NCBI GenBank assembly: GCA_025927655.1
Contig: JAICKY010000009.1
Location: 1 to 32,317, forward strand
DNA from: Candidatus Saccharimonadota bacterium
Lineage (GTDB): Bacteria > Patescibacteriota > Saccharimonadia > Saccharimonadales > UBA4665
Direction of reading: 5' to 3'
DNA length: 32,317 nt
The number at the start of each line of letters is the position of its first letter. Within the stretch, counting starts at the first letter, position 1. The notes under the pieces were generated by a model. That model made no database searches, was not told the DNA's origin, and saw only the letters and a program-made list of their open reading frames with translations. Both the position numbers and the translations under genes were made by a program. Shown in pieces: positions 9,074-31,197 of this stretch.

Positions 9074-9235
9074 TAGACCTTCCCCCGATCTACCCCTATC
9101 AAAACTAATTCCCGGCAGCATCCCGTGCCGGTTTTACTCGTCAGTGTACCGTATGGTACACTTCCTCCTAAGAACCACCACGTTATACTACCGGGCAATC
9201 AGCTTTGCCAACGGGGTAGATCGGGGGAAGGTCTA
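9074..9235. repeat. 162-bp imperfect palindrome with perfect 23-bp terminal inverted repeats in a divergent promoter region
   Basis: tagaccttcccccgatctacccc (9074-9096) is the exact reverse complement of 9213-9235; inner hairpins CCGGCA...TGCCGG (9112-9131) and GTGTACC-GTAT-GGTACAC (9144-9161). Confidence 0.85.
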
Positions 9236-23967: not shown

Positions 23968-24134
23968 ATGTAATATCCGGGTAATGGAGACAAACCTTGC
24001 GGTTTTTCTCATCGCACGGAGCGTCGGAATAAATCCGCCGACTCCGGCTGCTCTTTTCCCTTACCCCGGGTTGAGCTTTAGTTTATTTCCTCAGGATTCC
24101 ATCGACCTTTTATCCTGAGTGATCTGTTACAAAG

Positions 24135-24166
24135 AAAGAGCCTTTGGTGTGTACCAAAGGCTCTTT
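24135..24166 (-). other. 14-bp perfect hairpin in the rplJ leader; candidate attenuator or L10-leader element
   Basis: AAAGAGCCTTTGGT-GTGT-ACCAAAGGCTCTTT; on the minus strand followed by CTTTGTAAC. Confidence 0.6.
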
Positions 24167-24269
24167 ACAGTTTGAGTGCTCGAAAAACAAAAAGATTTCG
24201 TATGCCTCGGTGACAAATTAAGGTATAGATTGAATCTATAGTCCAGTCACTGTCTTTGGTAACTTGAAC

Positions 24270-24298
24270 AGTATAGCAAACAGAGGTGTTATCGTCAA
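24270..24298 (-). promoter_or_regulatory. Sigma70-like promoter of the rplJL operon
   Basis: Minus strand TTGACG-N17-TATACT, about 300 nt upstream of the rplJ ATG. Confidence 0.7.
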
Positions 24299-25357: not shown

Positions 25358-27670
25358 TTATGTTTTGGACGGGGTCGGCTCAGTTGCCTTAGTCGTCTCT
25401 ACGAAAGACATAGCTTCGGCTAGTAACGGATGGACTTCGGTAATTTTGTCGTACATTTGCAGGGCGATCTTGCGGCAATCCTTGTCGCTCTCCGGTGCGG
25501 TATACAACTCCAACATTCGAAACGCTTCGCGTGCGTTTACCGTTACCTGCCAACGTACGTTGTGGCCGTGGAGGACGGCGTACTGAGCCAGCAGCGGGCC
25601 TTTGGCCGCTTGCAGGGCGCTGTACAGTTCCAGGCTTAAGTCAAAGCAGTGCTCGAATGATTCGGCTAGGCCCGCGTCTATCACTAGCTGCGGGACGTCG
25701 TAACCGAGCCGGGGGGTACATTCCTGTGATGATGGGTTGTCCACCATGTGATGGCGCTGTAACTCTTTGAATACCCCATATTTGGCTGTCAGGTCGAAGC
25801 TGTAGTGGATTTTTTCGAGCGGTCTTCCCGGCCGCTGGTATTTGCTGGGCCGGTCGCCCATGTATGCCGCGAAAACATCAAGCTTTTGCTGATATGACCA
25901 CTGGGAAACCTGCTGCAGGAGCGCTTCCAGTGGGAGATCGCTGTGGGGATAGAGCATGTCGGCTACGATATCGAGTTCGTTACGCGGCCAATATGCAGCT
26001 AATCCAACCGGCCCTGTAGCGGCTGTGTAGTTTGTTGGCAAAAGAGTATTCGCCAGATTTTTTACTGTTTCCCGGGTGGTTGTCCGGTATGTAAGGGCGG
26101 CTTTATTCTGGCCCGTTTCGGCGGTACCCTCCAGAAATACCGGAATAATTTTACGGGCTTCGATGAGAAGCGCTGCTCCAGCGGTCCGCAGTTCGGCTAG
26201 TTCGTCATTTTGCAGATGCAGGATAAGGTTTTCGAGCGCCTGTCCCGAAGCAAATATGCCGACCGTAGTTTTAGCTGCTAACGGCAACGCATCTTGCAAA
26301 ATGCTGCGCGCTTGGACGCTGGTGGCGCTTTGCCATGCAGCTCCCCGTCCCGATTTTGCCGCGGATGAATTTTTGCGAATGTATTCGGCCAGTGTGCCGA
26401 CCATACTGGCGTATGTGCCGAATATGTCATTCATGCTGCGGATGTACTGGCTCCGCACCTTGCCTGTAAGCTCGGCCGGTATGTAGAATTTGTAATTCCC
26501 GTTCGTATTTTTTTGGTCGAACTGGACATATGGGGCAGCCTGCTCTGTATATGATGCTAGCCGTCCCAATTCGAGACCCCTGGCCAGTAGCGCGCTGGCC
26601 CCTTCGGCAATAAAATGCCTGCCCGCCAATTGCTGCACAGCATCGTCACTGTAGGCATTGATTGTCTGGCTGAGTAGTTGCTGGTCGGTGGCCATCTTCT
26701 CTATTGAACCATCGAGTAGCATGGTGTGCATGTCGCTGTTGCTATGGCTGAGCCGGGCCATAGCGGCGGCGATAACAACCGGCGGCAAGGTGTTTGTGAA
26801 CCCATATATCGGGCTGTCGGCATTGGTGATGTACGTCGCTAGATCGGGCTTGGTAGTCTCCGCCGTACTTGTAGCTTTGCTTTCTGTCTCTTTGACTTCG
26901 GGATGGATAGCTGCCGGTGTTTCGGGCGCTGGTGCGTCAGCGGTAAGTACGGGCGGTTCTACAGCGGCCGCTTGTACGATTGGCTTGGTTGCCAGCACCT
27001 CGCCAACAGATTGGGGCTTTGACGCAGCGGTATCACCGGTGCGAAGCGCTAAGGTGCTGGTTACGTGCTGCCAGACGTGCTTAAACACGGTCTCGACGTC
27101 TTCATTGGCGTAGACTACGGGCAGGTTACGCTGCTTGGCTTCCCAGAGGTAGCCAGCACGGACTCGTTCCAGAAATGCCTCGTCCAGATTGTCAAAGCGT
27201 TCGGCATTAGAACGTACCCGGACGCGTTCTTTCAGGGTGCTGGCCGGCGCATCCAGGACAAGCATAAGATCTGGCTGCATATCACCAACGGCAAAATTTA
27301 TGATGTCGTTAATGGCGGTGTAGTCCGGCACGTCTCCCCGGCCGTAGTATTGAATGGCCAGCGTAGTAAGGTAGCTGCGGTCTACCAGGCAAATGACGCC
27401 GTTGGCCACCGCAGTACGGATAACCTCGAGTGATTGCGAGCGCGCAGCGTTGTACAGCAGTACCTCAGTGCGGGTACTCATGGGGTAGCGCGGGTCTTGG
27501 GTGAGTCTGCGAATCGCGCGGGCGGTCAGGTCGTTTTGACTGTCTGGCTCTCGCAGGATTTTTACCGGCAGCTGCGCGGCCTGAAGCTGGGCAGCAAGCA
27601 TTTGTACGATGGTGGTTTTGCCGACGCCCTCGGCCCCTTCGATGACGATATATTTACCCAAGACGCTCAT
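25358..27670 (-). CDS. Fusion protein: N-terminal thymidylate kinase plus two tandem ThyX-like domains
   Basis: Tmk: YIVIEGAEGVGKTTIVQML, DRSYLTTLAIQYYG. ThyX-like copy 1: GRHFIAEGASALLARGLELGRLASYTEQAAPYVQF. Copy 2: GVFKELQRHHMVDNPSSQECTPRLGY...WQVTVNAREAFRMLELYTAPESDKDCRKIALQMYDKI. Confidence 0.82.
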   Translation of the reverse strand: MSVLGKYIVIEGAEGVGKTTIVQMLAAQLQAAQLPVKILREPDSQNDLTARAIRRLTQDPRYPMSTRTEVLLYNAARSQSLEVIRTAVANGVICLVDRSYLTTLAIQYYGRGDVPDYTAINDIINFAVGDMQPDLMLVLDAPASTLKERVRVRSNAERFDNLDEAFLERVRAGYLWEAKQRNLPVVYANEDVETVFKHVWQHVTSTLALRTGDTAASKPQSVGEVLATKPIVQAAAVEPPVLTADAPAPETPAAIHPEVKETESKATSTAETTKPDLATYITNADSPIYGFTNTLPPVVIAAAMARLSHSNSDMHTMLLDGSIEKMATDQQLLSQTINAYSDDAVQQLAGRHFIAEGASALLARGLELGRLASYTEQAAPYVQFDQKNTNGNYKFYIPAELTGKVRSQYIRSMNDIFGTYASMVGTLAEYIRKNSSAAKSGRGAAWQSATSVQARSILQDALPLAAKTTVGIFASGQALENLILHLQNDELAELRTAGAALLIEARKIIPVFLEGTAETGQNKAALTYRTTTRETVKNLANTLLPTNYTAATGPVGLAAYWPRNELDIVADMLYPHSDLPLEALLQQVSQWSYQQKLDVFAAYMGDRPSKYQRPGRPLEKIHYSFDLTAKYGVFKELQRHHMVDNPSSQECTPRLGYDVPQLVIDAGLAESFEHCFDLSLELYSALQAAKGPLLAQYAVLHGHNVRWQVTVNAREAFRMLELYTAPESDKDCRKIALQMYDKITEVHPLLAEAMSFVETTKATEPTPSKT

Positions 27671-27825
27671 ACTACCTCACTTTCCCTGCTACGACAGACC
27701 AGATCACGCGTTCCGTAACCTTTTTGCTTGTCGCCATAGCTACTGCTATGCCTTCGCACAAGAAAAGTCGCGGCTCGCACGATCTGCCCCGTTTCACTTA
27801 CGGGAAATGAGCTACTATGAGCGTC
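27662..27825 (-). repeat. 164-nt imperfect palindrome between the dcd-like gene and tmk-thyX; would sequester the tmk-thyX RBS and start codon in mRNA
   Basis: Outer arms 27662-27686 and 27802-27825; middle arms 27700-27710 / 27776-27786; core CATAGC-TACT-GCTATG 27735-27750; all concentric. Confidence 0.8.
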
Positions 27826-28537
27826 ATTCATAGCTCATACCTTCGATTTTGCGCGGCATGCTGCGCTGATCTTTCCAGGCTTGCGGCAGCATCAGGCTTG
27901 GCGACCAGGTTTTGATAAGTGTTTCCAGATCGGTGCCGCTTTGGTATTTGTTGGCGGAGCGGCTGGATAGGTGCTTGCCATAGCTGCCATCGACTTCGCC
28001 GGTCTCATGGAACACTACCTGGGCGATTCGTTCGCCTATAGGTAACAGGACGGTCTCTCGCTCGTTTAAGTTATGGACGGTAAACGTGAGCCTGTTAATG
28101 TAACCGGGGTTAATCCAGCCGGCGTCAAGTGCAACGGCGACGCCATTACGCCCCCAGCTGCTGCGGCTTTTTACTTCACAGGCCCCTGGCGGTTTTATAC
28201 CGAAAAATTCGTGCGTATGCGCCAGGATGTGTTCGCCGGGTTTTAGGGCGATTACGGGGTGGTCATCGGGGATGCCGGCCAGCGGCTTGAATCCATTTAG
28301 GTTGCACCATTCCAGATGTGGCATGGCTTTGTATGGGCCGTCGAAATAGCGTTCCACGTCTTCGCGGTCAAAAGGGTTGTAGATAGTCCGTTCGTTGGCG
28401 AGCTCGATCCGGTAGTAATAATACCCGAGCGTGACATCCAGACTGGCATGGGCCACGTTTTCTGGATCAAACGGATGACAGACGATGTGATCGTCTGCTA
28501 TATACTGCCGGATTTGCGTGTTACTGAGTACGCTCAT
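27824..28537 (-). CDS. dCTP deaminase/dUTPase (Dcd) family protein
   Basis: MSVLSNTQIRQYI, ASLDVTLG, SRSSWGRNGVAVALDAGWINPGYINRLTFTVHN, IGERIAQVVF. Confidence 0.85.
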   Translation of the reverse strand: MSVLSNTQIRQYIADDHIVCHPFDPENVAHASLDVTLGYYYYRIELANERTIYNPFDREDVERYFDGPYKAMPHLEWCNLNGFKPLAGIPDDHPVIALKPGEHILAHTHEFFGIKPPGACEVKSRSSWGRNGVAVALDAGWINPGYINRLTFTVHNLNERETVLLPIGERIAQVVFHETGEVDGSYGKHLSSRSANKYQSGTDLETLIKTWSPSLMLPQAWKDQRSMPRKIEGMSYE

Positions 28538-28658
28538 AATCGCGCCTGCTACCCTCCTTACACCGCCGCGCCCGACCCGCTTCGTTAGATATCATTGTAC
28601 GGTTATGGCTGTTGCTCAGCAAGCCCCAAGGTAAGTTTTACAATAAAGCTGCCACAAG

Positions 28659-29162
28659 CTACGCGGCTGCGAATTGCTTGCCTACGATGTTGCCTGGTGC
28701 ATCTTTGTTAAAGAGGACCTCGCTATCCTCTAGCAGATATACATGCTGGATACCGGCCGCCAACATAGCGTTCCAACATGGCTCGCAGCACCACCAGTGC
28801 CCCCACATATAAAGTTCGCCTCCTGCAATGTCGGTATTGTGGTCACTAGCATTTTGAATGGTGCGTGCTTCGCAATGGTTTTTAGGGCCACAGCCTTCGC
28901 AGAGGTCATAGTCTTGACCTGTCGGACTGCCGAGGCGAACGCGCTCACAGCCATGTGCCATATGATATGGGCTGAGTCGTACTCCGCGCGCAATAACTTT
29001 TCCGTCTTTAACGATGACACCGCCGATCGGTTGCGCACCGTCGTTAGATTCCTTACAAGCAATTTCTTTGGCCGCCTGCATGAACTCGTTATCCGCGGGC
29101 ACATAGTCAATAGTACCCGCCGCAGGCATATACGGATAGTTGATGTGTTTTTTGCTATTCAC
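28659..29162 (-). CDS. dCMP/cytidine deaminase family zinc enzyme
   Basis: GGVIVKDGKVIARG, HCEARTIQNA (HxE), CEPCWNAMLAAGIQHVY (CxxC); GTG start. Confidence 0.82.
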   Translation of the reverse strand: MNSKKHINYPYMPAAGTIDYVPADNEFMQAAKEIACKESNDGAQPIGGVIVKDGKVIARGVRLSPYHMAHGCERVRLGSPTGQDYDLCEGCGPKNHCEARTIQNASDHNTDIAGGELYMWGHWWCCEPCWNAMLAAGIQHVYLLEDSEVLFNKDAPGNIVGKQFAAA

Positions 29163-29207
29163 CTCGTAAGACTCCTCGTTACTGTAGCAATCTTATACTT
29201 GTTTGCA

Positions 29208-29213
29208 TATAAT
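29208..29213 (+). promoter_or_regulatory. -10 box TATAAT 9 nt upstream of the ThyA-family ATG
   Basis: TATAATcagcaagtaATG. Confidence 0.5.
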
Positions 29214-29222
29214 CAGCAAGTA

Positions 29223-30059
29223 ATGGCGACGTTTGACGGGATATATCAGAAGCTGCTTACAGATATTATGCAGCACGGCGTGCGCGAAGTTAACCAGCGC
29301 ACTGGGCACGAGACGGCGGGTTTGCCCGGCGTGAGTTTTTCAGTGGATGTCGAGAAGGATGGCTTCCCACTGCTCTCGCTGCGTAAAATTCCCACCAAAA
29401 TCTTTATTGCGGAGCAGATCTGGTTTATTTCCGGCGCCCGTAAACCGGAAGTGTTCTTACGTAACTTTACGAAAATTTGGGATGATTTCACGAACCCCGG
29501 CGATGTCGTAACGGTAGCATACGGCTACCGCTGGCGGCGGCATTTTGGGCGTGACCAGCTGGGTATGCTGGTAGAATTACTGCAAAAGGACCCGTCTTCG
29601 CGGCAGGGGGTGGTAGTTACGTGGGACCCGTCCAGCGATGGCTTAGGCGGGGCCAGCAAGGCCAATGTGCCCTGCCCGTATACCTTTACGGTCAATATTA
29701 TGGGCGGCCGGCTCAACATGATGAATGTCGTGCGTTCCAATGATGTGATTTTAGGCCTGCCGCACGATGTTGCGGGATTTTGCCTGCTACAGCTGGTACT
29801 CGCGCAGAAGTTAGGGGTAAAACCTGGCATCTACACCCACACCATTGCCAATGCTCATGTGTATGATATCCACTATGATGCTGCCAACGAGATGATTGGC
29901 CGCGCTGCCGACGCGCCGAAAGTCACGCTGCAATTGCCGGACGACACCTATGGCCGTGCCGAGGCTAAAGATGTGAGCCTGGTAGACGACATCGACACGC
30001 CGCTGCAAGCGCAGTACAAGCCCGGCGAAGCCATAAAAGGCCTAAGGATCGTACTGTAA
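29223..30059 (+). CDS. Thymidylate synthase (ThyA) superfamily protein; active-site Asn replaced by Asp, possible dCMP methylase/hydroxymethylase-like enzyme
   Basis: RTGHETAGLPG, DGFPLLSLRKI, AEQIWFISG, VPCPYTF (Cys), RSNDVILGLPHDVAGFCLL, IANAHVYDIHYD. Confidence 0.88.
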   Translation: MATFDGIYQKLLTDIMQHGVREVNQRTGHETAGLPGVSFSVDVEKDGFPLLSLRKIPTKIFIAEQIWFISGARKPEVFLRNFTKIWDDFTNPGDVVTVAYGYRWRRHFGRDQLGMLVELLQKDPSSRQGVVVTWDPSSDGLGGASKANVPCPYTFTVNIMGGRLNMMNVVRSNDVILGLPHDVAGFCLLQLVLAQKLGVKPGIYTHTIANAHVYDIHYDAANEMIGRAADAPKVTLQLPDDTYGRAEAKDVSLVDDIDTPLQAQYKPGEAIKGLRIVL

Positions 30060-30553
30060 TGAGAACGTTTATTATTGCCGCGATCTCTGCCGATGGTTTC
30101 ATTGCGCGCAGCAGCGATGAACTGGCAGACTGGACCAGCAAAGAGGACAAGAAACTGTTCGTAGAGCTTACCAAGCGGGCTGGCGTGATGGTTATGGGAA
30201 ATACTACGTTTAAAACTATCGGCCGCGCACTGCCTGATCGCCAAACCATCGTGTATAGCCGCCAAGACTTGCCGTATGACGATGTAGAGGTAACCAGTGA
30301 AGACCCGGTTGATTTAGTTGCACGACTAAATAAAGCCGGGCAAGCAGAGCTGGCTATTTGCGGCGGCAGTACCATATATAGCTTGTTTATGCAGGCTGGT
30401 GTGGTGGACGAACTGTACTTAACCGTAGAGCCGTGTCTGCTCGGCGGCGGTGTACCCCTGTTCGACGCTGCACTTGATGCCAAACTGAAACTGCTGGAAA
30501 CGCGGCAGCTCAATGAAAACGTACTATTATTACATTACGAGGTTCAAAAATAA
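30059..30553 (+). CDS. Dihydrofolate reductase family protein
   Basis: IIAAISADGFIARSS, VMVMGNTTFKTIGRALPDRQTIVYSR, ICGGSTIYSLFM; TAATG overlap with the upstream gene. Confidence 0.85.
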   Translation: MRTFIIAAISADGFIARSSDELADWTSKEDKKLFVELTKRAGVMVMGNTTFKTIGRALPDRQTIVYSRQDLPYDDVEVTSEDPVDLVARLNKAGQAELAICGGSTIYSLFMQAGVVDELYLTVEPCLLGGGVPLFDAALDAKLKLLETRQLNENVLLLHYEVQK

Positions 30554-31197
30554 TGTCAGTACTCACCCGTCAGGAAATTTTAGAACATGTAGCTACCGGG
30601 AAAGTAGCGTTTAATCCGGCGCTGGACGTATTTCAGTTGCAGGCACATTCAGTAGATTTACGGTTAGGGTTCACCTTTTTGGTGCCCAAATCATGGCACA
30701 TGACTAAAAAGGGCCGTGAAGCATTGCACATGGATTATTTTGCCGAAGACCGGCCGGAATATTTTGACATTGTGGAACTAGAACAGGGGCAGTTTTTTGA
30801 TCTGCTCCCCGGCGAGCATATTCTGGTGTCGTCGCTGGAATCTATCAAGATTCCCGAGGATTTGATGGCCGTTATGTACCCGCGCAGCAGCACGAACCGT
30901 AAAGGCATATCGGTAGACCTCACGGGGATTATCGATAGCGGCTACGAAGGCCAGTTAGTTATTCCAGTGCGCAATAACACGCAGTCTCAGACCGTGCGGT
31001 TGTATCCTGGTGAGCGTTTTTGCCAGGTTGTGTTCCAAAAACTAAGCCACAACGTAGACGCGCGTAAAAGCCGCTATCACCAGCGCGATATCATTGATGG
31101 CGTCGATGTCGATAGCTTGGAATCGGAGCGTAACACAGAGATCGAACTGATTCGATCTGGTGATATGAAAAAACTCAAGAACGACCACGCGGCGTAA
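30553..31197 (+). CDS. dCTP deaminase/dUTPase family protein (second paralogue)
   Basis: MSVLTRQEILEHV, HSVDLRLG, YPRSSTNRKGISVDLTGIIDSGYEGQLVIPVRNN, PGERFCQVVF; overlaps the DHFR stop. Confidence 0.86.
   Translation: MSVLTRQEILEHVATGKVAFNPALDVFQLQAHSVDLRLGFTFLVPKSWHMTKKGREALHMDYFAEDRPEYFDIVELEQGQFFDLLPGEHILVSSLESIKIPEDLMAVMYPRSSTNRKGISVDLTGIIDSGYEGQLVIPVRNNTQSQTVRLYPGERFCQVVFQKLSHNVDARKSRYHQRDIIDGVDVDSLESERNTEIELIRSGDMKKLKNDHAA

What the first reader, a model, noticed from the sequence alone, without database searches (positions are those of the whole stretch)
27662..27825. 164-nt intercistronic mRNA hairpin that would bury the tmk-thyX RBS and AUG
In the minus-strand mRNA, 5'-GACGCUCAUAGUAGCUCAUUUCCC (just after the dcd-like stop) pairs with 5'-GGGAAAGUGAGGUAGUAUGAGCGUC, which contains the GAGGU RBS and the AUG AGC GUC start of tmk-thyX. 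About 22 of 24 positions pair, with two G-G mismatches and one bulge. Inner arms (CAGAUCGUGCG / CGCGUGAUCUG with G-U pairs) and the core hairpin are concentric around 27743. This looks like a translational switch, possibly opened by ribosomes finishing the dcd-like gene or by a ligand.
Basis: partly seen in the sequence, partly recalled or inferred. Interest (0 to 1): 0.75.

Follow-up and report, generated by a model that had tools for sequence, protein, structure and literature searches.

The report
Dispersed 164-bp palindrome at tmk-thyX start
The hairpin over the start of the tmk-thyX gene is real, but it is one copy of an apparently undescribed family of about 163-base palindromic repeats scattered through small (Saccharibacteria-type) bacterial genomes, many of them at gene starts, rather than a switch made for this gene.

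Summary
In detail: window 27662-27825 (minus strand) folds into one 164-nt hairpin (-82.5 kcal/mol, z -9.5) that buries the tmk-thyX SD and AUG. The 'translational switch' reading is not supported. In 27 of 29 sampled relatives dcd and tmk-thyX overlap or abut without the hairpin; only the non-sister genome G017 carries a homologous 164-nt copy there, with 12 compensatory base-pair changes. A tip-motif search and covariance model show the hairpin is dispersed: 6 hits in this genome (including the window's other long hairpin, 9074-9235), up to 12 (E<=1e-3) in other Saccharibacteria, and 18 of 380 genomes sampled across the phylum. Copies span 158-172 nt, are near-perfect palindromes, differ in stem sequence but share a tip (8-bp stem, 4-nt loop, 5x5 internal loop GAGRA/GACGA), lie in both orientations, and often adjoin gene starts (22/41 vs 15-19% null). 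In tmk and topA the element's end supplies the start codon; in G065 copies lie in-frame inside genes. Best reading: a mobile, RPE/REP/MITE-like palindromic repeat that replaced an overlapping start/stop junction. Translation of tmk-thyX then probably relies on dcd ribosomes melting the stem base or on RNase III; this is inferred. Mobiliser unknown.

The parts
27662..27825 (-). Full palindromic element (164 nt), tip strand = gene-sense strand
27802..27825 (-). Outer 5' arm (GACGCTCATAGTAGCTCATTTCCC); its first GA completes the dcd stop codon UGA (27824-27826)
27662..27685 (-). Outer 3' arm, holds SD and start codon of tmk-thyX (terminal repeat ...ATGAGCGTC)
27674..27678 (-). SD-like GAGGT, paired in the hairpin
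27714..27771 (-). Conserved tip with inner stem (covariance model R1 match, E 2.3e-12 in the genome)
27727..27752 (-). Tip motif GGCATAGCAGTAGCTATGGCGACAAG (8-bp stem, 4-nt loop, conserved GACRA side)
27824..28537 (-). Upstream gene, dCTP deaminase/dUTPase-like (dcd)
   Evidence: Pfam PF22769 E 8e-32
25358..27670 (-). Downstream gene, thymidylate kinase-ThyX fusion
   Evidence: Pfam PF02223 and PF02511
9074..9235 (-). Second, divergent copy of the element (162 nt) in the window; tip match 9124-9182
   Evidence: E 0.019; E 0.0014

Best explanation
The hairpin is one copy of a dispersed, non-coding, roughly 163-bp palindromic repeat (RPE/REP/MITE-like) found sporadically in Saccharibacteria and other Patescibacteria. 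A copy entered the overlapping dcd/tmk-thyX junction in an ancestor; its ends regenerated the dcd stop codon (UGA) and gave tmk-thyX a new SD and AUG. Pairing has been kept since, by selection on the element or the transcript or by arm-to-arm correction of the palindrome. On the mRNA the stem hides the tmk-thyX start; translation most likely relies on ribosomes terminating at the dcd UGA at the base of the stem and/or on RNase III cutting the stem. Shown: dispersal, near-fixed span, shared tip, covariation, in-frame and gene-start positions, empty sites in relatives. Inferred: mobility and its agent (unknown), route of translation.
For: Relatives overlap or abut dcd/tmk-thyX without an insert; only G000 and G017 have it. 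Second copy in G017 at topA. Tip pattern finds copies at unrelated loci, reversed-pattern control 0 in 93 genomes and 1 in 393; genome-wide scan gives 30 contigs where about 2 are expected by chance (own estimate). Covariance model: 6 hits in G000, 10 in G065, 9 in G044, 13 in an Uhrbacteria bin (E<=0.05); 44/393 genomes of the order; 18/380 of the phylum. Full copies 158-168 nt in 23 cases, 158-172 in further ones. Tip covariation 0.43 vs 0.22 shuffled. G065 copies 79-88% identical at four unlinked loci, direct AAT at both ends, in-frame in crtB-, pilin- and PriA-like ORFs. topA starts M-x-K-N-L-V in relatives but MSSKNLV with element-supplied start in G017 and G029, in opposite element orientations. 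Gene-start adjacency 22/41 vs 15-19%. A ribosome covering 15 nt past the dcd stop cuts the opening cost of SD-AUG from 12.5 to 3.3 kcal/mol.
Against: No autonomous parent or transposase identified; Y1/RAYT genes are absent from several element-bearing genomes, and those checked carry other palindromes. No clear target duplication at dcd/tmk. G000 copies are mutually diverged (at most 0.66 identity), so recent transposition in this genome is not shown. Model E-values are rough and three G000 copies (C1, C11, 9124) are weak hits supported by span and fold. No transcript data.
Confidence: 0.75

Rival explanations
1. A dedicated cis-regulatory RNA (translational switch, attenuator or ligand sensor) of tmk-thyX, opened by dcd translation or a ligand.
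For: SD and AUG are buried; pairing at the locus conserved with 12 compensatory changes between G000 and G017; dcd stop lies at the stem base and ribosome occupancy would free the start.
Against: Absent from 27 of 29 sampled loci including the two same-genus genomes; same element at topA, pyruvate kinase, crtB, PriA-like and other genes; both orientations, so antisense copies place the complement of the tip in the mRNA; no Rfam match. Only one tmk match in this 87%-complete genome, so strong silencing would be costly.
Confidence: 0.12
2. A structural element acquired by insertion but now selected in situ for mRNA processing (an RNase III site separating the dcd and tmk messages).
For: Pairing kept at dcd/tmk in two lineages whose tmk-thyX proteins are about 53% identical; diverged G000 copies remain near-perfect palindromes; Correia and ERIC elements are known to affect transcripts, Correia through RNase III (PMC10969869; PMC2649163 abstract).
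Against: No transcript data; absent in most relatives; arm correction by template switching could also keep the palindrome; no excess of G-U over A-C on the mRNA strand (81 vs 73).
Confidence: 0.3
3. A RAYT-mobilised REP/REPIN of the usual kind.
For: Tip on the complementary strand reads CGTC-8 bp stem-4 nt loop, the published CGTC-REP layout; Y1 transposase in 21/35 element-positive vs 10/35 element-free genomes.
Against: Groups not matched for phylogeny; PF01797 absent from G017, G029, G041, G111; RAYT genes checked in G000, G044 and G065 lie beside other palindromes; no model hit near 10 RAYT loci; stem lacks the AT start and CCA tail.
Confidence: 0.15

Closest known systems
Rickettsia palindromic elements (RPE)
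   Same: About 150-bp palindromes dispersed at unrelated loci, some in-frame inside ORFs with a conserved peptide (PMC10969869); intragenic copies in G065 likewise
   Different: Other phylum; frequent gene-start position; span kept at 158-172 nt while stem sequence drifts; no RPE sequence was compared here
CGTC-tagged REPs (Di Nocera et al. 2013, PMC3733652)
   Same: CGTC tag on one side, 8-bp stem, 4-nt loop; no dedicated transposase known
   Different: REPs are 20-40 bp, mostly downstream of genes, stem starts AT, tail CCA; here the hairpin is the tip of a 163-bp palindrome
Bacterial MITEs of similar size (Correia/NEMIS/CREE, ERIC, YPAL)
   Same: 70-300 bp, inverted terminal repeats, next to genes, form strong RNA stems, some processed by RNase III
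   Different: Different hosts and layout; near-complete palindrome with conserved tip; ends contribute stop and start codons; no transposase match found

Membership tests
MITE | 70-300 bp, non-coding, terminal inverted repeats, several unlinked copies per genome | tested here: met
   158-172 nt, palindromic ends, 6 hits in G000, 10 in G065
MITE | Target-site duplication and TIRs shared with a known transposase element | tested here: inconclusive
   AAT direct repeats at 4/4 G065 copies; none clear at dcd/tmk; no parent element found
Rickettsia palindromic element | Long palindrome lying in-frame in genes, encoding a conserved peptide | tested here: met
   G065 crtB-, pilin- and PriA-like ORFs carry xATPTxxxAF-type peptides
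Rickettsia palindromic element | Sequence homology to RPE families | not tested
   No RPE sequence was used
CGTC-REP | CGTC tag, 8-9 bp stem, 4-5 nt loop | tested here: met
   Consensus of 15 copies, reverse strand
CGTC-REP | Stem begins with AT pairs and tail fits CCA | tested here: not met
   Stem begins with purines, tail TCC/TTC
RAYT-mobilised REP | Element flanks or accompanies a RAYT gene | tested here: not met
   No model hit at 10 RAYT loci; RAYT absent in several element-bearing genomes
Known riboswitch/leader family | Match to an Rfam model | tested here: not met
   No hit up to E 10
Cis-regulatory switch of tmk-thyX | Conserved at tmk-thyX across relatives | tested here: not met
   2 of 29 loci
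Cis-regulatory switch of tmk-thyX | Condition-dependent change of translation | not testable with these tools
   Needs reporter or probing experiments

The most novel reading that the evidence does not exclude
A phylum-wide mobile hairpin that propagates through a single-stranded intermediate of fixed length (about 163 nt, tip recognised by an unknown enzyme), so that stem sequence is free but span and pairing are fixed, and whose ends act as portable stop and start codons that let it enter overlapping operon junctions, where it adds RNase III- or ribosome-dependent control to the downstream gene.
Probability: 0.2. Interest if true: 0.75.

Novelty: new variant of a known kind. Interest (0 to 1): 0.55.

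Why it matters
Repeated palindromes of this kind appear not to have been described in Patescibacteria, whose tiny, tightly packed genomes would be expected to exclude them (two searches of the held open-access library gave nothing; this is not exhaustive). The family shows how an insertion can be made tolerable at an overlapping gene junction by supplying a new stop and start codon, warns that strong hairpins over start codons in such genomes need not be switches, and gives a model and tip motif for finding further copies and the enzyme that moves them.

Tried and rejected
Rfam at gathering and E 10: nothing. Whole-element BLAST in own genome: single copy, misleading because stems drift; the tip motif and covariance model were needed. 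Viral contigs: short-pattern hits look like chance, full tip pattern none. Sulfurovum hits L131/L146: a peptidase coding motif without the long hairpin, chance. Protein scan of genome contigs found nothing. G-U versus A-C mispair test for strand-specific selection: 299 vs 136 on the tip strand, but base composition at other mismatches predicts a 2.9-fold excess and 2.15 is seen outside the tip, so inconclusive. RAYT as mobiliser: weak association only, own palindromes at RAYT genes. PriA-like ORF of G065: in-frame element seen, but spacing to the helicase domain is not longer than in solved PriA, so an added segment is not proven there. Internal promoter between the arms: none by consensus; the topA copy of G017 does have TGGTATAAT in its 5' arm. 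A Pfam call on host genes failed for wrong frames; gene names other than dcd, tmk-thyX, thyA, DHFR and PriA rest on recognisable sequence motifs.

Full report
OBSERVATION. The SD (27674-27678) and AUG (27668-27670) of tmk-thyX are in the 3' arm; opening -16..+9 costs 22.5 kcal/mol with the full transcript and 8.5 with the 3' arm alone. The dcd stop UGA shares its last two bases with the first two of the hairpin. Pfam confirms dcd and the Tmk-ThyX fusion. Rfam has nothing.

IT IS AN INSERT. tmk-thyX was found in 56 of 60 relatives; in the upstream regions of 29 loci compared, 27 show dcd and tmk-thyX overlapping or nearly abutting (for example TATGAATAAAGGTAAATAC), and only G000 and G017 have about 160 nt between them. 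The two inserts are both 164 nt, align end to end (0.67 identity, mutual best; shuffled background 0.51 +/- 0.03) and share an 83% identical core. G000 groups with the element-free G001 and G002, G017 falls elsewhere, so either one old insertion was lost many times or the same site was entered twice. Of 62 pairs, 12 changed on both sides and still pair (null 3.5, maximum 9 in 2000) and 4 are broken (null 14.9).

IT IS DISPERSED. G017 has a further copy directly before topA. A scan of 257 Gb gives 30 contigs, with about two expected by chance (own estimate): Saccharibacteria, an Uhrbacteria bin, a Bacteroidetes bin with many copies, and single Flavobacteriales, Sulfurimonas, Alphaproteobacteria, Rhodospirillaceae and Bacteroidia MAGs; two Sulfurovum-type hits are chance. 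The tip aligned over 15 copies has 74.5% of cells paired and covariation 0.43 (shuffled 61.8%, 0.22; slid versions lower). The model built from it finds 6 hits in G000, one being the window's other hairpin 9074-9235 (E 0.0014 in the smaller search). 44 of 393 genomes of the order have hits at E 1e-3, and 18 of 380 sampled over the phylum at 1e-4.

ANATOMY. 23 hand-delimited copies are 158-168 nt long; further copies from other families and classes (for example G608, G424, G451) span 158-172, while some hits have other spans and the Bacteroidetes copies may be a separate subfamily. Shared features: 8-bp stem with a 4-nt loop, a 5x5 internal loop (GAGRA/GACGA), then a long stem whose sequence varies between copies, and ends often resembling TAGA-CTCAT...ATGAG-TCTA. 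One G065 subfamily is 79-88% identical at four unlinked loci, with direct AAT at both ends.

POSITION. An ORF of at least 100 codons opens outward within -75..+15 of an element end in 22 of 41 copies, against 15% (all positions) or 19% (outside ORFs) of random placements in the same loci. At topA, relatives begin M-x-K-N-L-V right after a promoter-like stretch, while G017 and G029 begin MSSKNLV with the ATGAG(C/T)TCT of the element end, and the two elements lie in opposite orientations. At crtI/crtB of G065 the element supplies the crtI stop codon TAG and runs in frame into crtB. The PriA-like ORF of G065 carries a copy in frame.

MECHANISM. Both orientations occur relative to the gene, the host genes are unrelated, and most relatives lack the copy, so a gene-specific switch is unlikely. 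The stem should nevertheless matter wherever it is transcribed. At dcd/tmk-thyX a ribosome ending on dcd stands at the base of the stem: covering 15 nt past the stop lowers the SD-AUG opening cost from 12.5 to 3.3 kcal/mol in G000 and from about 22 to 9 in G017 (the G017 stop is placed one base off in that script). RNase III cutting, known for Correia elements (PMC10969869), would have a similar effect. Which applies is not known. Only one Tmk match exists in this 87%-complete genome, which argues against permanent silencing.

STRAND TEST. G-T mispairs exceed A-C on the tip strand (299 vs 136), but mismatches on that strand are G-rich overall (expected ratio 2.9, seen 2.15 outside the tip), so this does not prove RNA-level selection. 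On the gene-sense strand there is no excess (81 vs 73).

COMPARISON. It works like, and looks like, RPEs, CGTC-REPs and MITEs. The CGTC tag, stem and loop lengths fit CGTC-REPs, but the AT stem start and CCA tail do not (PMC3733652), so it is not filed there. RAYTs are not consistently present and those examined carry different palindromes. It is best called a new palindromic repeat family of the RPE/MITE kind. Two literature searches for such repeats in Saccharibacteria or the candidate phyla radiation returned nothing, within an incomplete library.

LIMITS. The tip pattern was derived from the first copies found; model E-values are rough; genomes are MAGs; no expression data exist; in-situ maintenance of pairing could be selection or template-switch correction; the mobilising enzyme is unknown.

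Noticed in passing
window 9074-9235: Second long hairpin (162 nt, z -11.1 in a 171-nt fold) between divergent genes; shares the GAGGA/GACGA tip layout and is a divergent copy of the same element.
   Followed up: yes
window 25358-31197: Nucleotide cluster with both ThyX (fused to Tmk, minus strand) and ThyA, DHFR and a second dcd-like gene (plus strand 28743-31197).
   Followed up: partly
window 24123-24277 (-): L10 ribosomal protein leader by Rfam (RF00557, E 2.7e-5).
   Followed up: no
L175 1204-2045, L182 1163-2020, L167 1934-1972, L168 1266-1974: RAYT-like genes of Saccharibacteria flanked by or near their own palindromes, several with a GGACGGACC or similar motif: apparently ordinary REPtrons.
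   Followed up: partly
G393 (JAJRSY, Bacteroidetes Dive96_bin1.168) and G398 (Flavobacteriales QIJL): 58 and 35 model hits (E<=0.05), a high-copy related palindrome family with a fully paired tip region (TTATCGGCATAGCCGTAGCTACGGCGATAA), sometimes next to a CCTGCCTGCCGGCAGGCAGG repeat.
   Followed up: partly
L062 1425-1450 (G017 topA copy): TGGTATAAT, an extended -10-like site, in the 5' arm of the element.
   Followed up: no
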